Below, piece after piece: positions 1 through 8,498 of a DNA stretch of 8,498 nt. The stretch's first letter is position 1. Each line of letters begins with the position of its first letter. The notes beneath the pieces were generated by a model. It searched no databases. It was given only the letters and a program-made list of their open reading frames with translations, and was not told the origin of the DNA. Origin of the DNA: Oscillospiraceae bacterium (GTDB lineage Bacteria; Bacillota_A; Clostridia; Oscillospirales; Oscillospiraceae). The stretch is taken from positions 1 to 8,498 of the forward strand of contig SVLG01000072.1 of the NCBI GenBank assembly GCA_015068055.1, written 5' to 3'. A program made the translations under genes and the position numbers.

Positions 1-114
1 TCGCGTTACTTTGATTTTACAGAGGAGGAGTGGCTACAGACGGTACGCGCAAGCGTACCGGCCAGGTTTACCCAGCTGAACGAAAAAGCCTTCCTGCTGG
101 GGAGAAACCTCTGA
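1..114 (+). CDS. iorB: 3' end of iorB (indolepyruvate oxidoreductase beta subunit), cut by the window start
   Basis: Frame 1 from the first base encodes the last 37 residues of IorB (beginning SRYFDFTEEEW and ending FLLGRNL) and a TGA stop at 112-114. The same codons occur in the complete iorB at 7915-8487. If the record is a circle this is that one gene seen twice and should not be counted as a second copy. If the record is linear it is the tail of a second, identical-at-the-end iorB. In either case it places iorB 30 nt upstream of paaK. Confidence 0.9.
   Translation, partial: SRYFDFTEEEWLQTVRASVPARFTQLNEKAFLLGRNL
41..60 (+). repeat. Perfect 8-bp hairpin with GCAA loop inside the iorB 3' end
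   Basis: CGGTACGC (41-48) and GCGTACCG (53-60) are exact reverse complements around the 4-nt centre GCAA, a GNRA-type tetraloop if transcribed. It lies in iorB codons for a TVRASVPA stretch and is repeated at 8414-8433 as part of the terminal repeat. It has no following T-run, so it is not a typical terminator. It may stabilise the mRNA between iorB and paaK, or be a coincidence of codon choice. Confidence 0.5.
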
Positions 115-144
115 AAATCAAAGAAAAGGAGCGAATACATAAAA

Positions 145-1446
145 ATGGAAAGATACTATCAGCCGGAAATTGAGTGCGCCAGCCGCGAGACGATGATCGC
201 GCTGCAGTCTGAGCGCCTCGTAAAACAGGTCAAACACGTTTGGGATAATGTTCCCTATTATCGCAAGAAGATGGAGGAGAAAGGCGTTACTCCCGATGAC
301 ATCAAGGGCATTGAAGATCTCCATAAGCTCCCCTTCCTTACCAAGTCCGATCTCCGCGAGGCCTATCCCTACGGCCTCATGGGCAAGCCTCTGAAGGACT
401 GCGTGCGTATCCAGTCCACCTCCGGCACCACGGGCAAGCGCGTGGTTGCCTTCTACACCCAGCACGACATTGACCTCTGGGAGGACTGCTGCGCCCGCGC
501 CATCGTGGCCGCCGGCGGCACCGACGAGGACGTATGTCAGGTCTCCTACGGTTACGGTCTGTTCACCGGTGGTCCCGGTCTCAACGGCGGCTCCCATAAG
601 GTGGGCTGCCTGACCGTTCCCACCTCCTCCGGCAACACCGAGCGGCAGATCATGTTCATTCAGGATCTGCAGTCCACCATTCTTTGCTGCACCCCCTCCT
701 ATGCTGCCTTCCTGGGGGAGACTATGAAGGAAATGGGCCTCACCCCCGATCAGATCCCTCTGAAGGCCGGCATCTTCGGCGCGGAGGCCTGGAGCGAGGA
801 GATGCGTCAGGACATCCAGAACACCCTGGGCATCAAGGCCTACGATATCTACGGCCTCACCGAGCTTTCCGGCCCCGGCGTTTCCTTCGAATGCAGCGAG
901 CAGCGCGGCATGCACGTCAACGAGGACCACTTCATCGCCGAGATCATCGACCCCGATACCGGTGAAGTGCTGCCCGAGGGCGAACAGGGCGAGCTGGTGT
1001 TCACCGCCATCGACAAGGAAGCCTTCCCCATGATCCGCTACCGTACCCGGGACATCTGCCGGCTGAGCCGGGAGAAGTGTTCCTGTGGCCGTACCCATGT
1101 GCGTATGATGAAGCCCAAGGGCCGTACCGACGATATGCTGATCATCCGCGGCGTCAACGTCTTCCCCTCTCAGATCGAGACGGTGCTCATGAAGCACGGC
1201 TATACGGCCAACTACCAGATTATCATAGACCGCGTAAGGAATACGGATACACTGGATATATGGGTGGAGATGATCCCGGGGATGTTCCACGAAAGCCCCT
1301 CGGAGATCAGCCGTCATCAGAAAGAACTGGTGGGCGATCTTCGTTCCATGCTGGGCATTACTGCAAAGGTCACGCTGGTGGCCCCCAAGAGCATTGTTCG
1401 CAGCGAGGGCAAGGCGGTTCGTGTGATCGACCACCGTAAGATTTAG
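145..1446 (+). CDS. paaK: Phenylacetate-CoA ligase (arylacetate-CoA ligase, AMP-forming)
   Basis: This 433-residue protein is full length for the PaaK family. Such enzymes make arylacetyl-CoA from an arylacetate, CoA and ATP in the cytoplasm, releasing AMP and PPi. Visible motifs are the phosphate-binding loop STSGTTGK (91-98), the adenylate-binding YDIYGLTE (233-240), YRTRD (299-303), the hinge region GRTDDMLIIRGVNVFPSQIE (326-345) and a C-terminal GK with the probable catalytic lysine at 423. A CxCGR motif (312-316) is also present, as is common in the family. The ATG is preceded by AAAGGAG at 125-131, a rather long 13-nt spacing. It follows iorB by 30 nt and precedes lysR by 34 nt. That context favours aryl acids derived from aromatic amino acids (phenylacetate, indoleacetate, 4-hydroxyphenylacetate), but the exact substrate cannot be read from sequence. 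It could run towards acid or towards CoA ester. Confidence 0.93.
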   Translation: MERYYQPEIECASRETMIALQSERLVKQVKHVWDNVPYYRKKMEEKGVTPDDIKGIEDLHKLPFLTKSDLREAYPYGLMGKPLKDCVRIQSTSGTTGKRVVAFYTQHDIDLWEDCCARAIVAAGGTDEDVCQVSYGYGLFTGGPGLNGGSHKVGCLTVPTSSGNTERQIMFIQDLQSTILCCTPSYAAFLGETMKEMGLTPDQIPLKAGIFGAEAWSEEMRQDIQNTLGIKAYDIYGLTELSGPGVSFECSEQRGMHVNEDHFIAEIIDPDTGEVLPEGEQGELVFTAIDKEAFPMIRYRTRDICRLSREKCSCGRTHVRMMKPKGRTDDMLIIRGVNVFPSQIETVLMKHGYTANYQIIIDRVRNTDTLDIWVEMIPGMFHESPSEISRHQKELVGDLRSMLGITAKVTLVAPKSIVRSEGKAVRVIDHRKI

Positions 1447-1480
1447 AATTCCTATATCCCAAGCAGAGGATTGTTTTGCT

Positions 1481-2362
1481 ATGACCTTAAAGCAACTGGA
1501 ATATTTCATGGAAGTCGCCAATAATCTCAGCTTTTCGGAGGCCTCCAAAAAACTGTTTATCAGCCAGCCTGCGCTGAGCCGCAGCATTGTTTCTCTGGAA
1601 AATGAACTGGGTGTTTCGCTTTTCACCCGCAATCGGCAGGGCGTTTCCCTGACTTCTGCGGGAGAGCTTTTGGCTGCGAAGCTGCCCACGCTCCAAAATG
1701 AGCTGCACCAGCTGATGCTCTCTGTGCGTCAGGTGAAGAGCGGCCTTATCGGGCATCTGAACATCGGTATGCTGGAAGGCCAGCAGATGCCGGAACGCCT
1801 GCGCGCAGCGCTGGACCATTTCGCGAAAAATCTTCCCTTCGTGGAGATCTCTCTGCTGCGGCTGGGAGAGGAGGAACTCCTGGACCGGCTGGAGAAGGGC
1901 GCGCTGGATCTTGTCTTTTCTCTGGACCATGGTCTGGATGAACTGAAAAATGTACGGTATATGCAGCTTGAGCCGGTTTCCTATTGCATGCTGGTTCCTC
2001 TGAACCATCGGCTGGCCGACGAGAAAACAGCCAGACTCAGCGACTTCGCGACGGACACCTTTATCTTCACCGGAGAAGGCAGAACAACGCCGGAAACGCG
2101 CTTTTTGCTGGACTGCTGTGCCAGAGCGGGCATCCAGCCCCGCAGCCGCTACGTGGCCAATACACAAACGGGTCAGCTCTGGAGCGAGGCAGGCTTTGGT
2201 GTCTCCCTGTTCAATGCCCGGCACCGGGCCTGTATGTCTCAGGACGCGAGGGCGATCCCCATCGTCGATCTCCCGGAGCGGCACATGGCGCTGGCATGGA
2301 AGAGTATTTCCAGAAATCCCTGTATCCAGCTGTTCAACCATGCGGTTGAGGGCGGATGCTGA
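1481..2362 (+). CDS. LysR-family transcriptional regulator
   Basis: This is a 293-residue protein of normal LysR length. The N-terminal winged helix-turn-helix (about 1-60) is clear: it starts MTLKQLEYF, then FSEASKKLFISQPALSRSI (18-36), then LENELGVSLFTR (39-50) and LTSAG. The rest (about 90-293) fits the two-lobed effector-binding domain, which is poorly conserved and gives no ligand. The start is supported by AGAGGA at 1465-1470, 10 nt before the ATG. The gene lies 34 nt after paaK on the same strand and is followed by a hairpin terminator, so it is probably the last gene of iorAB-paaK-lysR. LysR regulators more often diverge from their targets, so this one may act at a distance, on the iorA promoter region, and control its own expression through the operon. 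The likely effector is an aryl acid, aryl-pyruvate or CoA ester (inference). Confidence 0.92.
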   Translation: MTLKQLEYFMEVANNLSFSEASKKLFISQPALSRSIVSLENELGVSLFTRNRQGVSLTSAGELLAAKLPTLQNELHQLMLSVRQVKSGLIGHLNIGMLEGQQMPERLRAALDHFAKNLPFVEISLLRLGEEELLDRLEKGALDLVFSLDHGLDELKNVRYMQLEPVSYCMLVPLNHRLADEKTARLSDFATDTFIFTGEGRTTPETRFLLDCCARAGIQPRSRYVANTQTGQLWSEAGFGVSLFNARHRACMSQDARAIPIVDLPERHMALAWKSISRNPCIQLFNHAVEGGC

Positions 2363-2408
2363 CATTCCTTTGATATTTTCATCTCATTTTCTTCCTTTTT
2401 TCCCGCGC

Positions 2409-2442
2409 GAAGCCCCGCCGGAGCTGCTCCGGCGGGGGCTTT
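2409..2442 (+). terminator. Probable intrinsic terminator after lysR
   Basis: A GC-rich stem forms from AGCCCCGCCGGAG (2411-2423) and CTCCGGCGGGGGCT (2427-2440), with a CTG loop and one extra G in the right arm. The right arm runs into TTTG, so the T-run is short. The stem lies 46 nt after the lysR stop and before the thioesterase ribosome binding site, so it would end or attenuate the operon transcript and reduce read-through into the thioesterase. Confidence 0.7.
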
Positions 2443-2469
2443 GTGTCAGATGATGGCAGGAGACATACT

Positions 2470-2901
2470 ATGACTGCTGAAGAACGTAAAGCGATACAGG
2501 AGAGGCATCAGGCGGCCAGAGAGAAGCTGTGCGGCGTCTGTGCGCAGCTGTTTCCGGATGTGATCCACTGGGACACGGAGGCTATGGAGATGCTGAGCGT
2601 CTTCCATACCGATGAACAGATGGAGAATACCAGGGGCTGGCTCCACGGTGGTCTGATTGCCACGATTTTTGACAATGGACTTGGTATATTGGCTGATGCG
2701 CATGCAGGCGGCGACTCTGCACCAACGTCTTCTATACATGTGGAGTATCTGCGGCCGGTGCCGTTGATGGTGCCGCTATACCTTCACGCAAAGATCGTGA
2801 AGCTCGGCAGGACCCTCATCCATGTGCGGGGCGAACTGCTGGACGCAGCCGAAAACGGAAAGACCCTCGCGGCGGCTACCGGAATATTCTTCCGGTGCTG
2901 A
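2470..2901 (+). CDS. PaaI-like hotdog-fold acyl-CoA thioesterase
   Basis: A 143-residue protein with the single-domain hotdog thioesterase pattern of the PaaI/4HBT group: WLHGGLIATIFDNGLG at 57-72, with the HGG turn (59-61) and the likely catalytic aspartate at 68. A later SSIHVEYLRPVP strand segment is typical of the fold. The family hydrolyses acyl-CoA or aryl-CoA thioesters and acts as dimers or tetramers in the cytoplasm. I chose the ATG at 2470 rather than the in-frame GTG at 2443 because AGGAGA (2458-2463) sits 6 nt upstream of it and the GTG overlaps the terminator. It is separated from lysR by 107 nt and a terminator, so it may have its own promoter, though I see no clear one. Its nearness to paaK and iorAB suggests release of arylacetate from arylacetyl-CoA, but other acyl-CoAs are possible. 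Confidence 0.85.
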   Translation: MTAEERKAIQERHQAAREKLCGVCAQLFPDVIHWDTEAMEMLSVFHTDEQMENTRGWLHGGLIATIFDNGLGILADAHAGGDSAPTSSIHVEYLRPVPLMVPLYLHAKIVKLGRTLIHVRGELLDAAENGKTLAAATGIFFRC

Positions 2902-2904
2902 CGC

Positions 2905-2950
2905 TACAGGCAAACGCCGCCGACCCAGGGGTCGGCGGCGTTTGCCTGTA
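2905..2950. terminator. Bidirectional hairpin between convergent thioesterase and thioredoxin genes
   Basis: The left arm (2905-2925) and right arm (2930-2950) are perfect 21-nt reverse complements around a 4-nt CAGG loop. The core is very GC-rich (GCCGCCGACC) and is flanked by AAA and TTT. It begins 4 nt after the thioesterase stop and ends 5 nt before the thioredoxin stop on the other strand, so one structure can end transcription from both sides. TGCTTTT follows on the plus strand; the minus-strand exit has no clear T-run. Confidence 0.85.
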
Positions 2951-2955
2951 TGCTT

Positions 2956-3261
2956 TTACAGCATGGCCAGAATGGCACTCTTGGGACGGGCGCCCATGGA
3001 CTGGTTAACAACCTTTCCGTTTTTCATCACCAGCAGGGTGGGGATGCTCATGACGTTGAATTGGGCGGCCAGCTCCGGCTGCTCATCCACGTTGATCTTG
3101 CCAACCTTGATGTCGGGACGTTCCACGGCAATTTCTTCCACCAGAGGCACAACCATACGGCAGGGACCGCACCAGGGTGCCCAGAAGTCCAGCAGGACGG
3201 GTCTATCGGCTTCCATGACTTCGCTGTGGAAATTGTTTTTGTTAATATTGAGAGCAGACAT
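2956..3261 (-). CDS. trxA: Thioredoxin
   Basis: A 101-residue classical thioredoxin, a small cytoplasmic dithiol reductant. The active site FWAPWCGPCR spans 26-35 with redox cysteines 31 and 34. The conserved cis-proline is in SIPT (Pro74), and VGKINVDEQPELA (53-65) is the usual central strand and helix. The C terminus is slightly short compared with the common 105-108 residues. The ATG at 3261 (minus strand) is chosen because GGAGGA sits 6 nt upstream (3268-3273). The longer in-frame reading to 3441 would add residues unlike any thioredoxin and run into the epimerase gene. No thioredoxin reductase is next to it. It faces the thioesterase across a shared terminator and diverges from the epimerase. 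A TATAAT and a palindrome lie upstream. Confidence 0.95.
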   Translation of the reverse strand: MSALNINKNNFHSEVMEADRPVLLDFWAPWCGPCRMVVPLVEEIAVERPDIKVGKINVDEQPELAAQFNVMSIPTLLVMKNGKVVNQSMGARPKSAILAML

Positions 3262-3297
3262 TTTTTGTCCTCCTTGCTTTTTCTTTATTGTGGCCTT

Positions 3298-3303
3298 ATT
3301 ATA
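3298..3303 (-). promoter_or_regulatory. Candidate -10 box for trxA
   Basis: The minus strand reads TATAAT, a perfect sigma-70-type -10 hexamer, about 37 nt upstream of the trxA ATG. At the usual 16-18 nt spacing the minus-strand -35 sequence is poor (CAGAAA at 3321-3326 with 17 nt), which fits a promoter that depends on an activator or is only moderately strong. Confidence 0.6.
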
Positions 3304-3324
3304 GCGGCAGGGAAGATTGTTTTC

Positions 3325-3339
3325 TGTGACGTCGTCACA
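3325..3339. promoter_or_regulatory. Perfect 15-bp palindrome, candidate operator between trxA and the epimerase gene
   Basis: TGTGACG and CGTCACA are exact inverted arms around a single T, and beyond one mismatch on each side the symmetry continues as TTT and AAA. The TGTGA and TCACA half-sites resemble those bound by Crp/Fnr-type regulators, but the spacing here is 5 nt instead of the usual 6. The centre lies about 41 nt upstream of the expected trxA start point and overlaps its -35 position. The regulator is unknown. Confidence 0.55.
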
Positions 3340-3382
3340 AAAAGGAAAGAATGTTCTGTCAAAATGCCATGGAGGTGGAAGT

Positions 3383-4327
3383 ATGAGCATTGAATTGCAT
3401 AACGGCCATCTGTCCTGCACCATTCTGCCCTTTGGTGCCACGCTGCAAAGCCTCCGGGTTCCCGACCGCGAAGGCGCACGGAGGGATGTGGTGCTGGGCT
3501 ACGACAGCCCTTCTGACTATGCGGAGCGGGACGGCTATCTGGGCGCCACTGTGGGACGCTTTGCAAACCGCATCGCCGGGGCAGGGTTCCGTTTGAATGG
3601 TCGGGATTATCCCCTGTACGCCAACGATGGTGCGAACCACCTTCATGGGGGCCGGGTGGGCTTTTCCCACAGGGACTGGACCGTGGAGGAAGCACCCGGT
3701 GACTGTGCGGTTTTGACTCTTTTCAGCTCCGACGGCGACGAAGGCTACCCCGGCAATCTCCGGGTGCAGGTGACATACGCGCTGGAGGGGACGGCCCTCC
3801 GCATTCGCTATAAGGCGGAAAGCGATGCCGATACCCTGTGCAGCCTTACAAACCACAGCTACTTCAATCTCTGTGGATGTGGCAGCGTGGCGGAGCAGGA
3901 GCTCATGCTCTGCGCCGACAGCTACACCCCGGTGGATGAGACATTGATCCCCACCGGGGCGATCGCCCCGGTGGCGGGGACGGCGCTGGACTTTCGCACC
4001 CTGCGGCCCATCGGCAGCGGTTACGACCATAACTTCGTGCTGCGCTCTGCGCCAGGTGCTCTGCGTCCGGCTGCCAAAGCCCGCTGCGCCGCAAGCGGGA
4101 TCACCATGACGGTGAGTACCACCATGCCGGGGCTGCAGCTCTATACGGCGGGTTTTCTTTCGGAGCGGCCGGGTAAGGGCGGCAGCGTTTACAGGCCGGG
4201 TTACGGTTTTTGTCTGGAAACACAGTTTTTCCCCGATTCTCCCAATCAGCCGGGTTTTCCCTCGGCGCTGCTGCGGGCAGGGGAGACCTATGAGCACGAG
4301 ACGCTGTTTGAATTTGGGATTGAATAA
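3383..4327 (+). CDS. galM: Aldose 1-epimerase (galactose mutarotase)
   Basis: A 314-residue protein of the aldose epimerase family, which interconverts alpha and beta anomers of sugars such as galactose and glucose. Recognisable motifs are LGATVGRFANRI (53-64), the substrate-binding NHLHGG with His88, TNHSYFNL with the probable catalytic acid His158, YDHNFVL with Asp215, and LETQFFPDSPNQPGFPS with the probable catalytic base Glu279. The ATG at 3383 has GGAGG 7 nt upstream (3371-3375). An upstream in-frame TTG at 3317 would add 22 residues that do not match the family and is rejected. It stands alone, diverges from trxA, and is followed by a strong terminator. No galactose operon genes accompany it and it has no evident link to the aryl-acid genes. 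The sugar specificity cannot be told, so galM is the family symbol rather than a proven function. Confidence 0.92.
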   Translation: MSIELHNGHLSCTILPFGATLQSLRVPDREGARRDVVLGYDSPSDYAERDGYLGATVGRFANRIAGAGFRLNGRDYPLYANDGANHLHGGRVGFSHRDWTVEEAPGDCAVLTLFSSDGDEGYPGNLRVQVTYALEGTALRIRYKAESDADTLCSLTNHSYFNLCGCGSVAEQELMLCADSYTPVDETLIPTGAIAPVAGTALDFRTLRPIGSGYDHNFVLRSAPGALRPAAKARCAASGITMTVSTTMPGLQLYTAGFLSERPGKGGSVYRPGYGFCLETQFFPDSPNQPGFPSALLRAGETYEHETLFEFGIE

Positions 4328-4363
4328 CAAACAGGACATCCATTGGGATGTCCTGTTTGTTTT
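4326..4363. terminator. Bidirectional intrinsic terminator between galM and the acyl-CoA synthetase gene
   Basis: A 16-nt arm (4326-4341) and its exact complement (4346-4361) form a perfect stem with an ATTG loop. The plus strand ends in TTTGTTTT and the minus strand ends in GTTTGTTATT, so both exits have T-rich tails. It starts at the end of the galM stop codon and ends 4 nt before the convergent synthetase stop, serving both genes. Confidence 0.9.
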
Positions 4364-4366
4364 ATG

Positions 4367-6001
<1,635 letters not shown>

Positions 6002-6053
6002 GAGACAGGTTCCTTTCCCACATTTGCTTTATTGGTTTTAATCGCTAAAGTGT

Positions 6054-6082
6054 ATATTACTGATTTCCCTTTATTCTGTCAA
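6054..6082 (-). promoter_or_regulatory. Candidate sigma-70-type promoter for the acyl-CoA synthetase gene
   Basis: On the minus strand a perfect TTGACA (-35, 6077-6082) is followed after exactly 17 nt by TAATAT (-10, 6054-6059). The expected start point near 6047 leaves a leader of about 46 nt before the ATG at 6001. Only the -10 box deviates from consensus (4 of 6 matches). Confidence 0.65.
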
Positions 6083-6095
6083 GTCTTATAAAAAA

Positions 6096-6137
6096 CAAAT
6101 TTATGGTTTACTCTTGCATTTTTATGTGGTAAATTTG
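6096..6137. promoter_or_regulatory. 8-bp inverted repeat in the iorA/synthetase divergent region
   Basis: CAAATTTA (6096-6103) and TAAATTTG (6130-6137) are exact inverted copies separated by 26 nt. The right arm covers the proposed iorA -10 box and the left arm lies upstream of its -35. A pair of arms on one DNA face could hold a regulator, and the LysR protein encoded at the operon's end is an obvious candidate. AT-rich DNA makes chance palindromes common. Confidence 0.3.
6107..6135 (+). promoter_or_regulatory. Candidate promoter for iorA and its operon
   Basis: TTTACT (-35, 6107-6112) and TAAATT (-10, 6130-6135) are 17 nt apart, and the -10 carries an extended TG at 6127-6128. Each hexamer matches 4 of 6 consensus bases. 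The start point would be near 6142, leaving about 27 nt of leader that includes the ribosome binding site. This modest match suggests a regulated promoter. Confidence 0.45.
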
Positions 6138-6168
6138 CGATATCATTCATAGAAAGCAAGGGAAAACC

Positions 6169-7911
6169 ATGAAAGAACTGATGCTCGGCAACGCTGCTGT
6201 CGCCCGGGGCCTGTATGAGGCCGGCTGCAACCTGATCTCCAGCTATCCCGGAACTCCCAGTACAGAGATCACGGAGGAAGCCGCCCGATTTAGTGAAATA
6301 TACTGTGAGTGGGCCCCCAATGAAAAGGTTGCCATGGAAGTGGCTTTTGGCGCTTCTCTGGCAGGCCGGCGATCCTTCTGTGCCATGAAGCACGTGGGAC
6401 TCAATGTGGCTGCCGATCCTCTTTATACCATGTCCTATACCGGCGTCAACGGCGGCATGGTCATCGCCGTGGCCGATGATCCGGGCATGCATTCCTCTCA
6501 GAACGAGCAGGACTCCCGCCATCATGCCATCGCTGCCAAGGTTCCCATGCTGGAACCCGCGGATTCCGCGGAGGCCCTGGCCTTTACCAAGCTGGCCTTT
6601 GAGCTTTCTGAAAGCTTTGATACGCCGGTGTTTATCAAGATGTGTACCCGCGTTGCCCATTCTCAGTCCGTGGTGGAGACCGGGGAGCGGGTGGAAGTGG
6701 AACTGAAACCCTATGTGAAGAACATTGCCAAGCACGTCATGACGCCTGCCAATGCCCGCCATCGCCACCCCTATGTGGAGGCACGAACGGAAAAGATCCG
6801 GCAGTGGTCCGAAACCTCCGGAATCAATCGCGTGGAGATGGGCGGCACCAAGCTCGGCATCATTACCCATTCCACCTCGTATCAGTATGTGAAGGAAGTT
6901 TTCGGCGACAGCGTTTCTGTTCTGAAGATCGGCATGACCAATCCTCTGCCTGTGGATCTTATCCGCGACTTTGCCGCGAAGGTGGAAAAGCTTGTCGTGG
7001 TGGAGGAACTGGATCCCATCCTTGAAAACCACTGCCGCGCGCTGGGCCTCTGCGTTTCGGGCAAGGATCTGTTTCCCCTGGTGGGAGAGTTTTCCCAGAA
7101 CCTTGTGGCGGAAAAGTTGGGCGGCGCAGTCCACAGCGGCCGCGCTCTGGATGTGGATATTCCGCCCCGGCCTCCCGTTATGTGCGCCGGCTGCCCCCAC
7201 CGTGGTCTGTTCTATGCGCTGAAGAAGAACAAATGCACCGTTCTTGGTGACATTGGCTGTTATACTTTGGGTGCTGCCGCGCCCCTTTCCTCCATGGAGT
7301 TCAACCTCTGCATGGGTGCCTCCGTCAGTACGCTCCATGGTTTCAACAAGGCCCGCGGCGCGGAGAGCGAAAAGAAAACCGTTGCTGTCATCGGTGACTC
7401 TACCTTTATGCACTCCGGCATGACCGGCCTTGCCAACGTGGCCTACAATGGCACCAACTCCACCGTTATCATCGTGGATAACTCCACCACCGGCATGACC
7501 GGCCACCAGCATAACCCCACCACCGGCTTCAACCTCCGGGGTGAACCGGCCGTGAAGATTGACCTGGAGACCCTTTGCCATGCGCTGGGTATTGAGCGTG
7601 TCCATGTGGTGGATCCCTACGATCTCAAGGCTACGGAAGAACGGATCCGGGAAGAACTCGCTTTTGAGGGCCCCTCCGTTATCATTTCCCGTCGGCCCTG
7701 TGCCCTGCTGAAAACCGTGAAGCACAATCCTCCTCTGAAGGTGAACGAGGACAAGTGTGTGGGCTGCAAGTCCTGCATGAAGATCGGTTGCCCGGCCATC
7801 TTTATGGAGGGCGGTAAGGCGAAGGTGGATACGACGCTTTGTCTGGGCTGCGGGGTCTGCAGTGAGCTGTGCCCCAAGGATGCGTTTGAGAGCAGCGTAA
7901 AGGAGGCGTGA
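6169..7911 (+). CDS. iorA: Indolepyruvate:ferredoxin oxidoreductase, alpha subunit
   Basis: A 580-residue IorA subunit, close to the usual length. With IorB it converts aryl-pyruvates plus CoA to arylacetyl-CoA and CO2 while reducing ferredoxin; the enzyme is oxygen-sensitive and cytoplasmic. The pyrimidine-binding N-terminal domain shows SSYPGTPSTEI (24-34). CAGCPHRG starts at 339. The thiamine diphosphate-binding segment begins GDSTFMHSG (409-417) and continues to VDNSTTGMTGHQ. The C-terminal ferredoxin-like domain has two 4Fe-4S motifs: Cys530, 533, 536, 541 followed by Pro, and Cys558, 561, 564, 568 followed by Pro. The start has AAGGGA at 6158-6163, 5 nt upstream. It is the first gene of the operon; iorB starts 3 nt after its stop. 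It follows a divergent promoter region shared with the acyl-CoA synthetase. Whether Trp, Phe or Tyr derivatives are preferred cannot be read directly. Confidence 0.95.
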   Translation: MKELMLGNAAVARGLYEAGCNLISSYPGTPSTEITEEAARFSEIYCEWAPNEKVAMEVAFGASLAGRRSFCAMKHVGLNVAADPLYTMSYTGVNGGMVIAVADDPGMHSSQNEQDSRHHAIAAKVPMLEPADSAEALAFTKLAFELSESFDTPVFIKMCTRVAHSQSVVETGERVEVELKPYVKNIAKHVMTPANARHRHPYVEARTEKIRQWSETSGINRVEMGGTKLGIITHSTSYQYVKEVFGDSVSVLKIGMTNPLPVDLIRDFAAKVEKLVVVEELDPILENHCRALGLCVSGKDLFPLVGEFSQNLVAEKLGGAVHSGRALDVDIPPRPPVMCAGCPHRGLFYALKKNKCTVLGDIGCYTLGAAAPLSSMEFNLCMGASVSTLHGFNKARGAESEKKTVAVIGDSTFMHSGMTGLANVAYNGTNSTVIIVDNSTTGMTGHQHNPTTGFNLRGEPAVKIDLETLCHALGIERVHVVDPYDLKATEERIREELAFEGPSVIISRRPCALLKTVKHNPPLKVNEDKCVGCKSCMKIGCPAIFMEGGKAKVDTTLCLGCGVCSELCPKDAFESSVKEA

Positions 7912-7914
7912 ACA

Positions 7915-8487
7915 ATGGAAAGCAAAAATATTATGATCGTCGGTGTCGGCGGCCAGGGTTCTCTGCTTGCCAGTAAGCTGCTGGGCAAAATGTTCCTGAA
8001 CCAGGGCTATGACGTAAAGGTTTCCGAGGTCCACGGTATGAGCCAGCGCGGCGGCAGCGTTGTGACCTATGTCCGCTGCGGCGAAAAGGTAGCCTCCCCC
8101 ATCATTGACGAGGGGGAAGCCGATTTCATTGTTTCTTTTGAACAGCTGGAGGCTGCCCGCTGGCTGAGCTATCTGAAGCCCGACGGCCAGATCGTTACTT
8201 CCATCCAGCAGATTGAGCCCATGCCGGTGATCACCGGTGCGGCGGAGTATCCCACGGATCTTGTGGAAAAAATGCGTGCCACCGGAGCAAAGGTGGATGC
8301 GCTGGACGTTTTGAGCCTTGCGGAGGAGGCAGGTTCTGCCAAGGCCGCCAACGTGGTCCTGATGGGCCGGCTCTCGCGTTACTTTGATTTTACAGAGGAG
8401 GAGTGGCTACAGACGGTACGCGCAAGCGTACCGGCCAGGTTTACCCAGCTGAACGAAAAAGCCTTCCTGCTGGGGAGAAACCTCTGA
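7915..8487 (+). CDS. iorB: Indolepyruvate:ferredoxin oxidoreductase, beta subunit
   Basis: A 190-residue protein matching the whole length of the IorB subunit, a pyruvate ferredoxin oxidoreductase gamma-type domain. Family signatures are the glycine-rich GVGGQGSLLASKLLG (10-24) and the highly conserved SEVHGMSQRGGSV (37-49). It pairs with IorA to form the active oxidoreductase. Its ATG is 3 nt after the iorA stop and its ribosome binding site AGGAGG (7901-7906) lies inside the last iorA codons, 8 nt from the start, which points to coupled translation in equal amounts. The last 114 nt are also present at the start of the window because of the terminal repeat. In the circular reading paaK follows after 30 nt. 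Confidence 0.96.
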   Translation: MESKNIMIVGVGGQGSLLASKLLGKMFLNQGYDVKVSEVHGMSQRGGSVVTYVRCGEKVASPIIDEGEADFIVSFEQLEAARWLSYLKPDGQIVTSIQQIEPMPVITGAAEYPTDLVEKMRATGAKVDALDVLSLAEEAGSAKAANVVLMGRLSRYFDFTEEEWLQTVRASVPARFTQLNEKAFLLGRNL

Positions 8488-8498
8488 AAATCAAAGAA
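8374..8498. repeat. Right copy of the 125-bp direct terminal repeat
   Basis: Identical to positions 1-125. It contains the iorB 3' end with its stop (8485-8487), the GCAA-loop hairpin (8414-8433) and 11 nt of the iorB-paaK spacer. I see no repeat-type sequence such as an insertion sequence end or attachment core in it, which favours an overlap of one circular sequence over a true biological repeat. Confidence 0.97.

What the first reader, a model, noticed from the sequence alone, without database searches (positions are those of the whole stretch)
1..8498. Exact 125-bp terminal overlap implies an 8373-bp circle
Positions 1-125 equal 8374-8498 without a mismatch, and the break falls inside a gene (iorB). 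Closing the ends yields an uninterrupted iorA-iorB-paaK-lysR operon. Possible explanations are a real small circle, a tandem chromosomal amplification that collapsed into a cycle in assembly, or an assembly overlap. A true second partial iorB is less likely because the identity runs precisely to both record ends.
Basis: partly seen in the sequence, partly recalled or inferred. Interest (0 to 1): 0.7.

Follow-up and report, generated by a model that had tools for sequence, protein, structure and literature searches.

The report
Self-overlapping contig of chromosome-type genes
The two ends of this short DNA record are the same 125 letters, which is how an assembly program marks a loop; the loop holds ordinary metabolic genes of a gut-type bacterium and no recognisable genes for copying itself, so it is more likely a repeated piece of a chromosome than a new plasmid, although a real small circle is not ruled out.

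Summary
In detail: bases 1-125 equal 8374-8498 exactly, 125 is the only exact end overlap among lengths 20-999, and no other exact repeat of 20 bases or more exists. Closing gives an 8373-base circle, 93% coding by eight intact genes. Closure restores the iorA-iorB-paaK order found in 54 of 62 testable related loci, so the record's break is an arbitrary opening. Any abnormal joint lies elsewhere, probably among lysR/tes/trx/galM: fetched relatives show only weak LysR or thioredoxin paralogues there. No plasmid-type gene family was found, the longest gene-free gap is 167 bases, and PLSDB has no near match. A hint of reproducibility: the identical thioesterase lies on five contigs, the longest 8500 bases, that is 8373 + 127, as a k=127 assembly would give. 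It is not proof: that contig carries no intact identical PaaK and may come from the same reads. Best reading: an assembler overlap on a real head-to-tail junction, most likely a tandem chromosomal duplication. Reads are needed to decide.

The parts
1..125 (.). left copy of the exact terminal repeat (last 114 bases of iorB plus 11 bases of spacer)
8374..8498 (.). right copy of the exact terminal repeat
145..1446 (+). paaK-like aryl-CoA (phenylacetate-CoA type) ligase, 433 aa
   Evidence: Pfam PF14535/PF00501; TIGR02155 over its whole profile, 511.7 bits, below the curated cut-off 646.3
1481..2362 (+). LysR-family regulator, 293 aa
   Evidence: PF00126 and PF03466
2413..2437 (+). terminator-like hairpin between lysR and tes (11 pairs)
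   Evidence: 12 terminator-like sites found in the window, 7.8 expected from shuffles
2470..2901 (+). hotdog-fold thioesterase (tes), 143 aa from the ATG; identical protein on 5 contigs, longest 8500 bases
   Evidence: PF03061; TIGR00369, just below cut-off
2905..2950 (+). perfect 22-base inverted repeat between convergent tes and trx, terminator-like
2956..3261 (-). thioredoxin, 101 aa
   Evidence: TIGR01068 above cut-off
3383..4327 (+). aldose 1-epimerase (galM-like), 314 aa
   Evidence: PF01263; NF008277 above cut-off
4326..4361 (.). perfect 16-base inverted repeat between convergent galM and the acyl-CoA ligase (not on the terminator scan's list)
   Evidence: one search does not list it
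4367..6001 (-). AMP-dependent acyl-CoA ligase (labelled caiC in my scripts as a nickname only), 544 aa
   Evidence: PF00501/PF13193; best NCBIfam NF004837 below cut-off
6169..7911 (+). iorA, indolepyruvate ferredoxin oxidoreductase alpha, 580 aa
   Evidence: TIGR03336 above cut-off
7915..8487 (+). iorB, indolepyruvate oxidoreductase beta, 190 aa, complete at the right end
   Evidence: NF005325 above cut-off

Best explanation
The 125-base identity is the k-mer overlap that a de Bruijn graph assembler leaves when a contig runs back into itself. Shown: the exact overlap, and that closing it restores a normal gene order. Inferred: the loop reflects reads across a real head-to-tail junction in DNA of an uncultured Oscillospiraceae-like bacterium, most likely a tandem duplication or amplification of an 8.4-kb chromosomal segment that collapsed into a cycle. 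The loop was opened arbitrarily inside iorB. The abnormal joint, if any, is elsewhere, most plausibly in the lysR-tes-trx-galM part. The genes would work as an ordinary chromosomal aryl-pyruvate/aryl-acetate fermentation cluster (iorAB, paaK, acyl-CoA ligase, thioesterase, regulator) with unrelated housekeeping neighbours (thioredoxin, aldose epimerase). This does not need an autonomous replicon.
For: Exact overlap running to both ends and no other long repeat. COBRA paper (PMC10914622, passages read): contig ends carry overlaps of maxK for metaSPAdes and MEGAHIT, and end overlaps are used to call 'self_circular' contigs. paaK after iorB on the same strand in 54 of 62 testable related loci, median gap 62.5 bases; here 30 bases. 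Divergent acyl-CoA ligase within 2.5 kb of iorA in 30 of 64 testable loci. Eight intact genes with chromosome-type functions, 93% coding. No replication or mobilisation family in the eight genes, and no Pfam match at all in the 19 other ORFs of 90 aa or more (11 further shadow ORFs of 60-89 aa, listed, were not scanned). Largest gap without genes 167 bases. No near match in PLSDB. Same-size recurrence hint: identical thioesterase on 5 contigs, longest 8500 = 8373 + 127. Host: the PaaK hit at 92% identity that carries a source name is from an Oscillospiraceae MAG.
Against: No reads, coverage or host genome were available, so a junction in real DNA is inferred. Close relatives of lysR, tes, trx or galM were not found beside the cluster, so a parental linear locus was not found and the joint could not be located. 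If the five thioesterase contigs come from different samples, a stable element would fit better than a private duplication. The missing replication gene is weak evidence: the PlasX paper (PMC10914615, passages) reports that MOB-suite found canonical features in only 61% of its reference plasmid subtypes.
Confidence: 0.5

Rival explanations
1. A real free DNA circle of 8373 bp: either a small plasmid with an unrecognised origin or an excised chromosomal circle present at useful copy number.
For: Exact closure with all eight genes intact. An identical thioesterase on five contigs, the longest exactly 8373+127 bases, is what independent closures at k=125 and k=127 would give. The region is not private to one contig: a LysR with one residue changed exists on another contig (P0121).
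Against: No Rep, relaxase or partition family found. Largest gap 167 bases. No tandem repeats resembling iterons (one 23-base array, inside a gene). DnaA-box-like sites no more than chance (6 against 3.31 expected, at least 6 in 25 of 200 shuffles). No plasmid-replication RNA in Rfam hits. No near PLSDB match. The 8500-base contig has no intact identical PaaK (the protein is listed on one contig of 8498 bases only), so it must either be opened within paaK (14% of possible openings) or differ.
Confidence: 0.3
2. A pure assembly artefact: a false loop made by chimeric reads or by graph simplification, joining pieces of one or two genomes that are not next to each other.
For: At 1e-15 only 2 of 80 genome loci have any lysR, tes, trx or galM hit, both weak (25% lysR in L038, 40% thioredoxin in L068). 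trx and galM matches lie on different contigs in 4 of the 4 genomes that have both (draft genomes). GC3 runs from 0.65 (tes) to 0.78 (paaK).
Against: The unit boundaries look natural: terminator-like hairpins after lysR and tes, a perfect inverted repeat after galM (not on the list of the terminator scan) and divergent starts for trx/galM. If the 8500-base contig is the same loop, the false loop would have to arise twice. The genes around the cluster do not match the window's in the relatives read either.
Confidence: 0.17
3. A true linear chromosome with two separate copies of the 125-base iorB end, where the contig simply stops at the repeat on both sides.
For: Assemblers do break at positions with several paths (PMC10914622, passages).
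Against: The identity includes 11 bases beyond the iorB stop and runs exactly to both record ends. Restoring iorB-paaK continuity gives the common order of relatives.
Confidence: 0.03

Closest known systems
Self-circular (direct-terminal-overlap) contig of a de Bruijn graph assembly
   Same: Exact end overlap of plausible k-mer size, odd length (125), no other long repeat, opening point inside a gene (COBRA passages).
   Different: Assembler and k are not known for this record; 125 is not one of the default maximum k values that I recall.
Chromosomal ior-paaK cluster of Oscillospiraceae and Lachnospiraceae
   Same: Acyl-CoA ligase (divergent), iorA, iorB, paaK in the same order in many loci; 72-80% identity for iorA over the 80 loci kept.
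   Different: Here followed by lysR, tes, trx and galM, of which fetched relatives show only weak LysR or thioredoxin paralogues nearby; best DNA identity over most of a gene is 83%, so no same-species reference.
Small circular metagenomic plasmids (e.g. PlasX predictions, PMC10914615)
   Same: Small, closes on itself; that paper stresses that many predicted plasmids lack canonical features (passages).
   Different: Here no plasmid-type gene was recognised; all eight are metabolic, redox or regulatory.

Membership tests
self-circular contig (k-mer overlap) | exact end overlap reaching both contig ends, single continuous copy otherwise | tested here: met
self-circular contig (k-mer overlap) | overlap equals maxK of the assembly | not testable with these tools
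   assembler unknown; 125 is odd and so a legal k; the 8500-base contig would imply 127
self-circular contig (k-mer overlap) | read pairs span the closure | not testable with these tools
   no reads held
autonomous plasmid | replication initiator or replication-control RNA | tested here: not met
   Pfam on all 8 genes and on the 19 other ORFs of 90 aa or more; NCBIfam on 8 genes; Rfam. Shadow ORFs of 60-89 aa were not scanned. A novel initiator or origin is not excluded.
autonomous plasmid | similarity to a known plasmid | tested here: not met
   no near DNA match in 72,556 PLSDB records; iorA protein at best 73.4%, on a Selenomonas plasmid of 285 kb
phage genome with terminal repeats | phage structural or replication genes | tested here: not met
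   no such family in Pfam or NCBIfam results (PHROGs not run); only a 243-base thioredoxin match (79%) in one phage record
tandem chromosomal duplication | unit flanked by unique chromosomal DNA, reads across unit-unit junction | not testable with these tools
   no host genome and no reads

The most novel reading that the evidence does not exclude
An 8373-bp extrachromosomal circle without any recognisable replication gene that is stably kept in an uncultured gut-type Oscillospiraceae lineage and carries an aryl-pyruvate to aryl-acetate module (iorAB, paaK, acyl-CoA ligase, thioesterase, LysR). It would recur at the same size in several metagenomes.
Probability: 0.12. Interest if true: 0.65.

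Novelty: new member of a known kind. Interest (0 to 1): 0.25.

Why it matters
Circular contigs are often taken as plasmids. This one shows how a clean overlap can be real while the plasmid reading has no support in gene content. If the loop were a real free element, it would be a replicon without a known initiator that carries amino-acid fermentation genes. If it is a tandem amplification, it would point to selection for more aryl-acetate metabolism in a gut bacterium.

Tried and rejected
Host genome: none is held for the window. Near matches in PLSDB (none) and in phages (one 243-base thioredoxin hit) gave nothing useful. A viral-contig scan with iorA gave one 6153-base contig (L081), in which an iorA piece runs into unrelated sequence; it was set aside. 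Scans with an exact 24-base piece and with tes (55 stretches matched a pattern, none encodes a relative) found nothing. I looked for a parental linear locus in 400 genomes of one family, 87 of another (only bases 2363-4366 as query), and 376 scored of 394 genomes of an order (18 not scored). These sets overlap and are drawn from larger groups. The best DNA identity over most of a gene was 83% and there was no species-level match. Searches scored only one or two candidates per genome, so a second match could be missed.

Locating the abnormal joint failed. The 30 galactose-epimerase loci fetched show no thioredoxin and no acyl-CoA ligase within their flanks of at most about 1.5 kb. The 15 thioredoxin loci show no galM or tes there. 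tes had no hit in 60 genomes at 1e-15 (no positive control, and the tool says an empty answer then shows nothing) and only 31-33% hits in 3 of 394 genomes at 1e-12. lysR had hits in 2 of 60 at 1e-45 (50% and 31%). The lysR-tes gap (terminator-like hairpin, then the tes start 32 bases later, no promoter listed by the scan) is my best guess for the joint, but it rests on that oddity alone, and the scan listed only five promoter-like sites in the whole window, near the 3.8 expected by chance. A DnaA-box scan and a tandem-repeat scan gave no origin signal. Paper searches on circular contigs were seen as listings; three papers were then read in passages. One search (10 of 16 papers listed) showed no title on tandem duplications seen as circular contigs; one search returned no paper.

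Corrections made on re-checking: the share of openings that would cut paaK is 14%, not the 17% I first estimated; the wording on neighbours now names the weak paralogues.

Full report
Observation. The first and last 125 bases are identical, no other prefix/suffix length from 20 to 999 matches, and all 106 20-mers that occur twice belong to this pair. The repeat finder agrees. The claim of an 8373-base closed length is arithmetically right.

Gene content. The closed sequence holds eight intact genes covering 93% of it: paaK, lysR, a hotdog thioesterase (tes), thioredoxin (minus strand), aldose 1-epimerase, an AMP-dependent acyl-CoA ligase (minus strand), iorA and iorB. iorA, iorB and thioredoxin pass NCBIfam equivalog cut-offs. 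The epimerase passes a subfamily model. PaaK matches TIGR02155 over its whole profile but below its cut-off, tes is just below the cut-off of TIGR00369, and the acyl-CoA ligase is below every cut-off shown, so their exact substrates are open. The nickname caiC used in my scripts is only a label. iorB is complete at the right end, so the left copy of the repeat is a redundant second copy of its 3' end plus 11 spacer bases.

Continuity across the closure. Of 62 loci with at least 1.5 kb beyond iorB, 54 have paaK within 2 kb on the same strand (median gap 62.5 bases, 39 of 54 at most 100); here the closed gap is 30. A divergent acyl-CoA ligase lies within 2.5 kb of iorA in 30 of 64 testable loci. 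Closing the window therefore restores a common order, and the record's ends are not an abnormal joint.

Where the loop departs from relatives. Close homologues of lysR, tes, trx and galM were not seen beside the cluster. At 1e-15 only 2 of 80 loci had any such hit, a 25% lysR between iorB and paaK in L038 and a 40% thioredoxin about 0.7 kb from the acyl-CoA ligase in L068. At weaker cut-offs a few more LysR paralogues of 31-35% appear (L013, L021, L070; L113 and L119, downstream of paaK on the other strand; L167 and L168, further stretches of genomes already seen). LysR proteins are a large family, so I do not count these as orthologues, but one could argue that a LysR gene near paaK is not foreign. 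Thirty epimerase loci and fifteen thioredoxin loci from relatives do not show the window's neighbours, with one 31% LysR near an epimerase (L138). No species-level relative was found (best DNA identity over most of a gene 83%), so the parental linear order is unknown and the joint cannot be placed.

What makes such an overlap. The COBRA paper (PMC10914622; passages only) states that metaSPAdes and MEGAHIT leave end sequences of maxK and IDBA_UD maxK-1, and uses end overlaps to call self-circular contigs. The paper on complete genomes from metagenomes (PMC7111523; passages only) also gives n and n-1, but assigns them to IDBA-UD and metaSPAdes the other way round. An exact overlap of odd length that runs to both ends and nowhere else is what this predicts. 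That 127 is the usual top k of SPAdes is from my own knowledge.

Recurrence hint. The row for the thioesterase, identical to the window's, lists one member sequence on five contigs, the longest 8500 bases. 8500 is 8373 + 127. A second assembly of the same loop at k=127 would have just this length. Against this: the window's PaaK is listed on one contig only, 8498 bases long, and the next best PaaKs are 76% (480 aa) and 92% identical (the 120 best of 7999 are shown, so cut pieces of an identical PaaK could be off the list). The 8500-base contig must therefore be opened inside paaK (14% of possible openings), carry a clearly changed paaK, or be something else. The table does not say whether the five contigs come from different samples. 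A LysR that differs from the window's in one residue (Lys139 to Arg) exists on a 1622-base contig (P0121), so more than one strain carries this gene.

Plasmid or not. No replication, relaxase or partition family was found in the eight genes, and the 19 other ORFs of at least 90 aa have no Pfam match; 11 shadow ORFs of 60-89 aa were not scanned. There was nothing at Rfam's gathering scores and only two sub-threshold hits, neither a replication RNA. The DnaA-box-like sites are no more than expected, there is no iteron-like array, the longest gap is 167 bases, and there is no near PLSDB match. This does not fit a known kind of plasmid, but it does not exclude an unknown origin. [quoted passage not shown] passages only). 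iorA relatives do occur on large plasmids (73.4% on a 285-kb Selenomonas plasmid).

Host. The named PaaK relative at 92% is from an Oscillospiraceae MAG, and the best genome loci are from Oscillospiraceae, Lachnospiraceae and related gut or rumen MAGs by their titles. 'Gut-type' is an inference from these relatives; the window's own source is not told.

Verdict. I hold a tandem chromosomal unit or amplification that collapsed in assembly as most likely (0.5), a free circle next (0.3), a false loop third (0.17) and a linear locus with a second partial iorB last (0.03). The record alone cannot decide.

Noticed in passing
window 2470-2901: The thioesterase has very few relatives in the protein search: 5 hits including itself, the others 44-53% identical (the search needs shared 5-residue words).
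   Followed up: partly
window 2363-2469: A terminator-like hairpin (2413-2437) ends 32 bases before the tes start codon and the scan lists no promoter between them; a candidate place for a joint or for an attenuator.
   Followed up: partly
window 1481-2362: LysR homologues fall from one residue different (P0121) to 60% identity, so the regulator is restricted to a small group of mostly unnamed metagenome contigs.
   Followed up: no
L081 1-6153: A viral-collection contig in which most of iorA (in a 687-aa ORF) runs into unrelated sequence, between an IS30-like ORF and a patatin-like ORF (both names recalled, not searched); perhaps a chromosomal insertion or chimera rather than a virus.
   Followed up: no
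window 2959-3201: 243 bases of the thioredoxin gene match an unannotated 22.5-kb record labelled Bacteriophage sp. at 79% (MT835663).
   Followed up: no
window 6169-7911: The best plasmid-borne relative of iorA is on a 285-kb Selenomonas ruminantium plasmid (73.4%), so this gene does occur on large plasmids.
   Followed up: no
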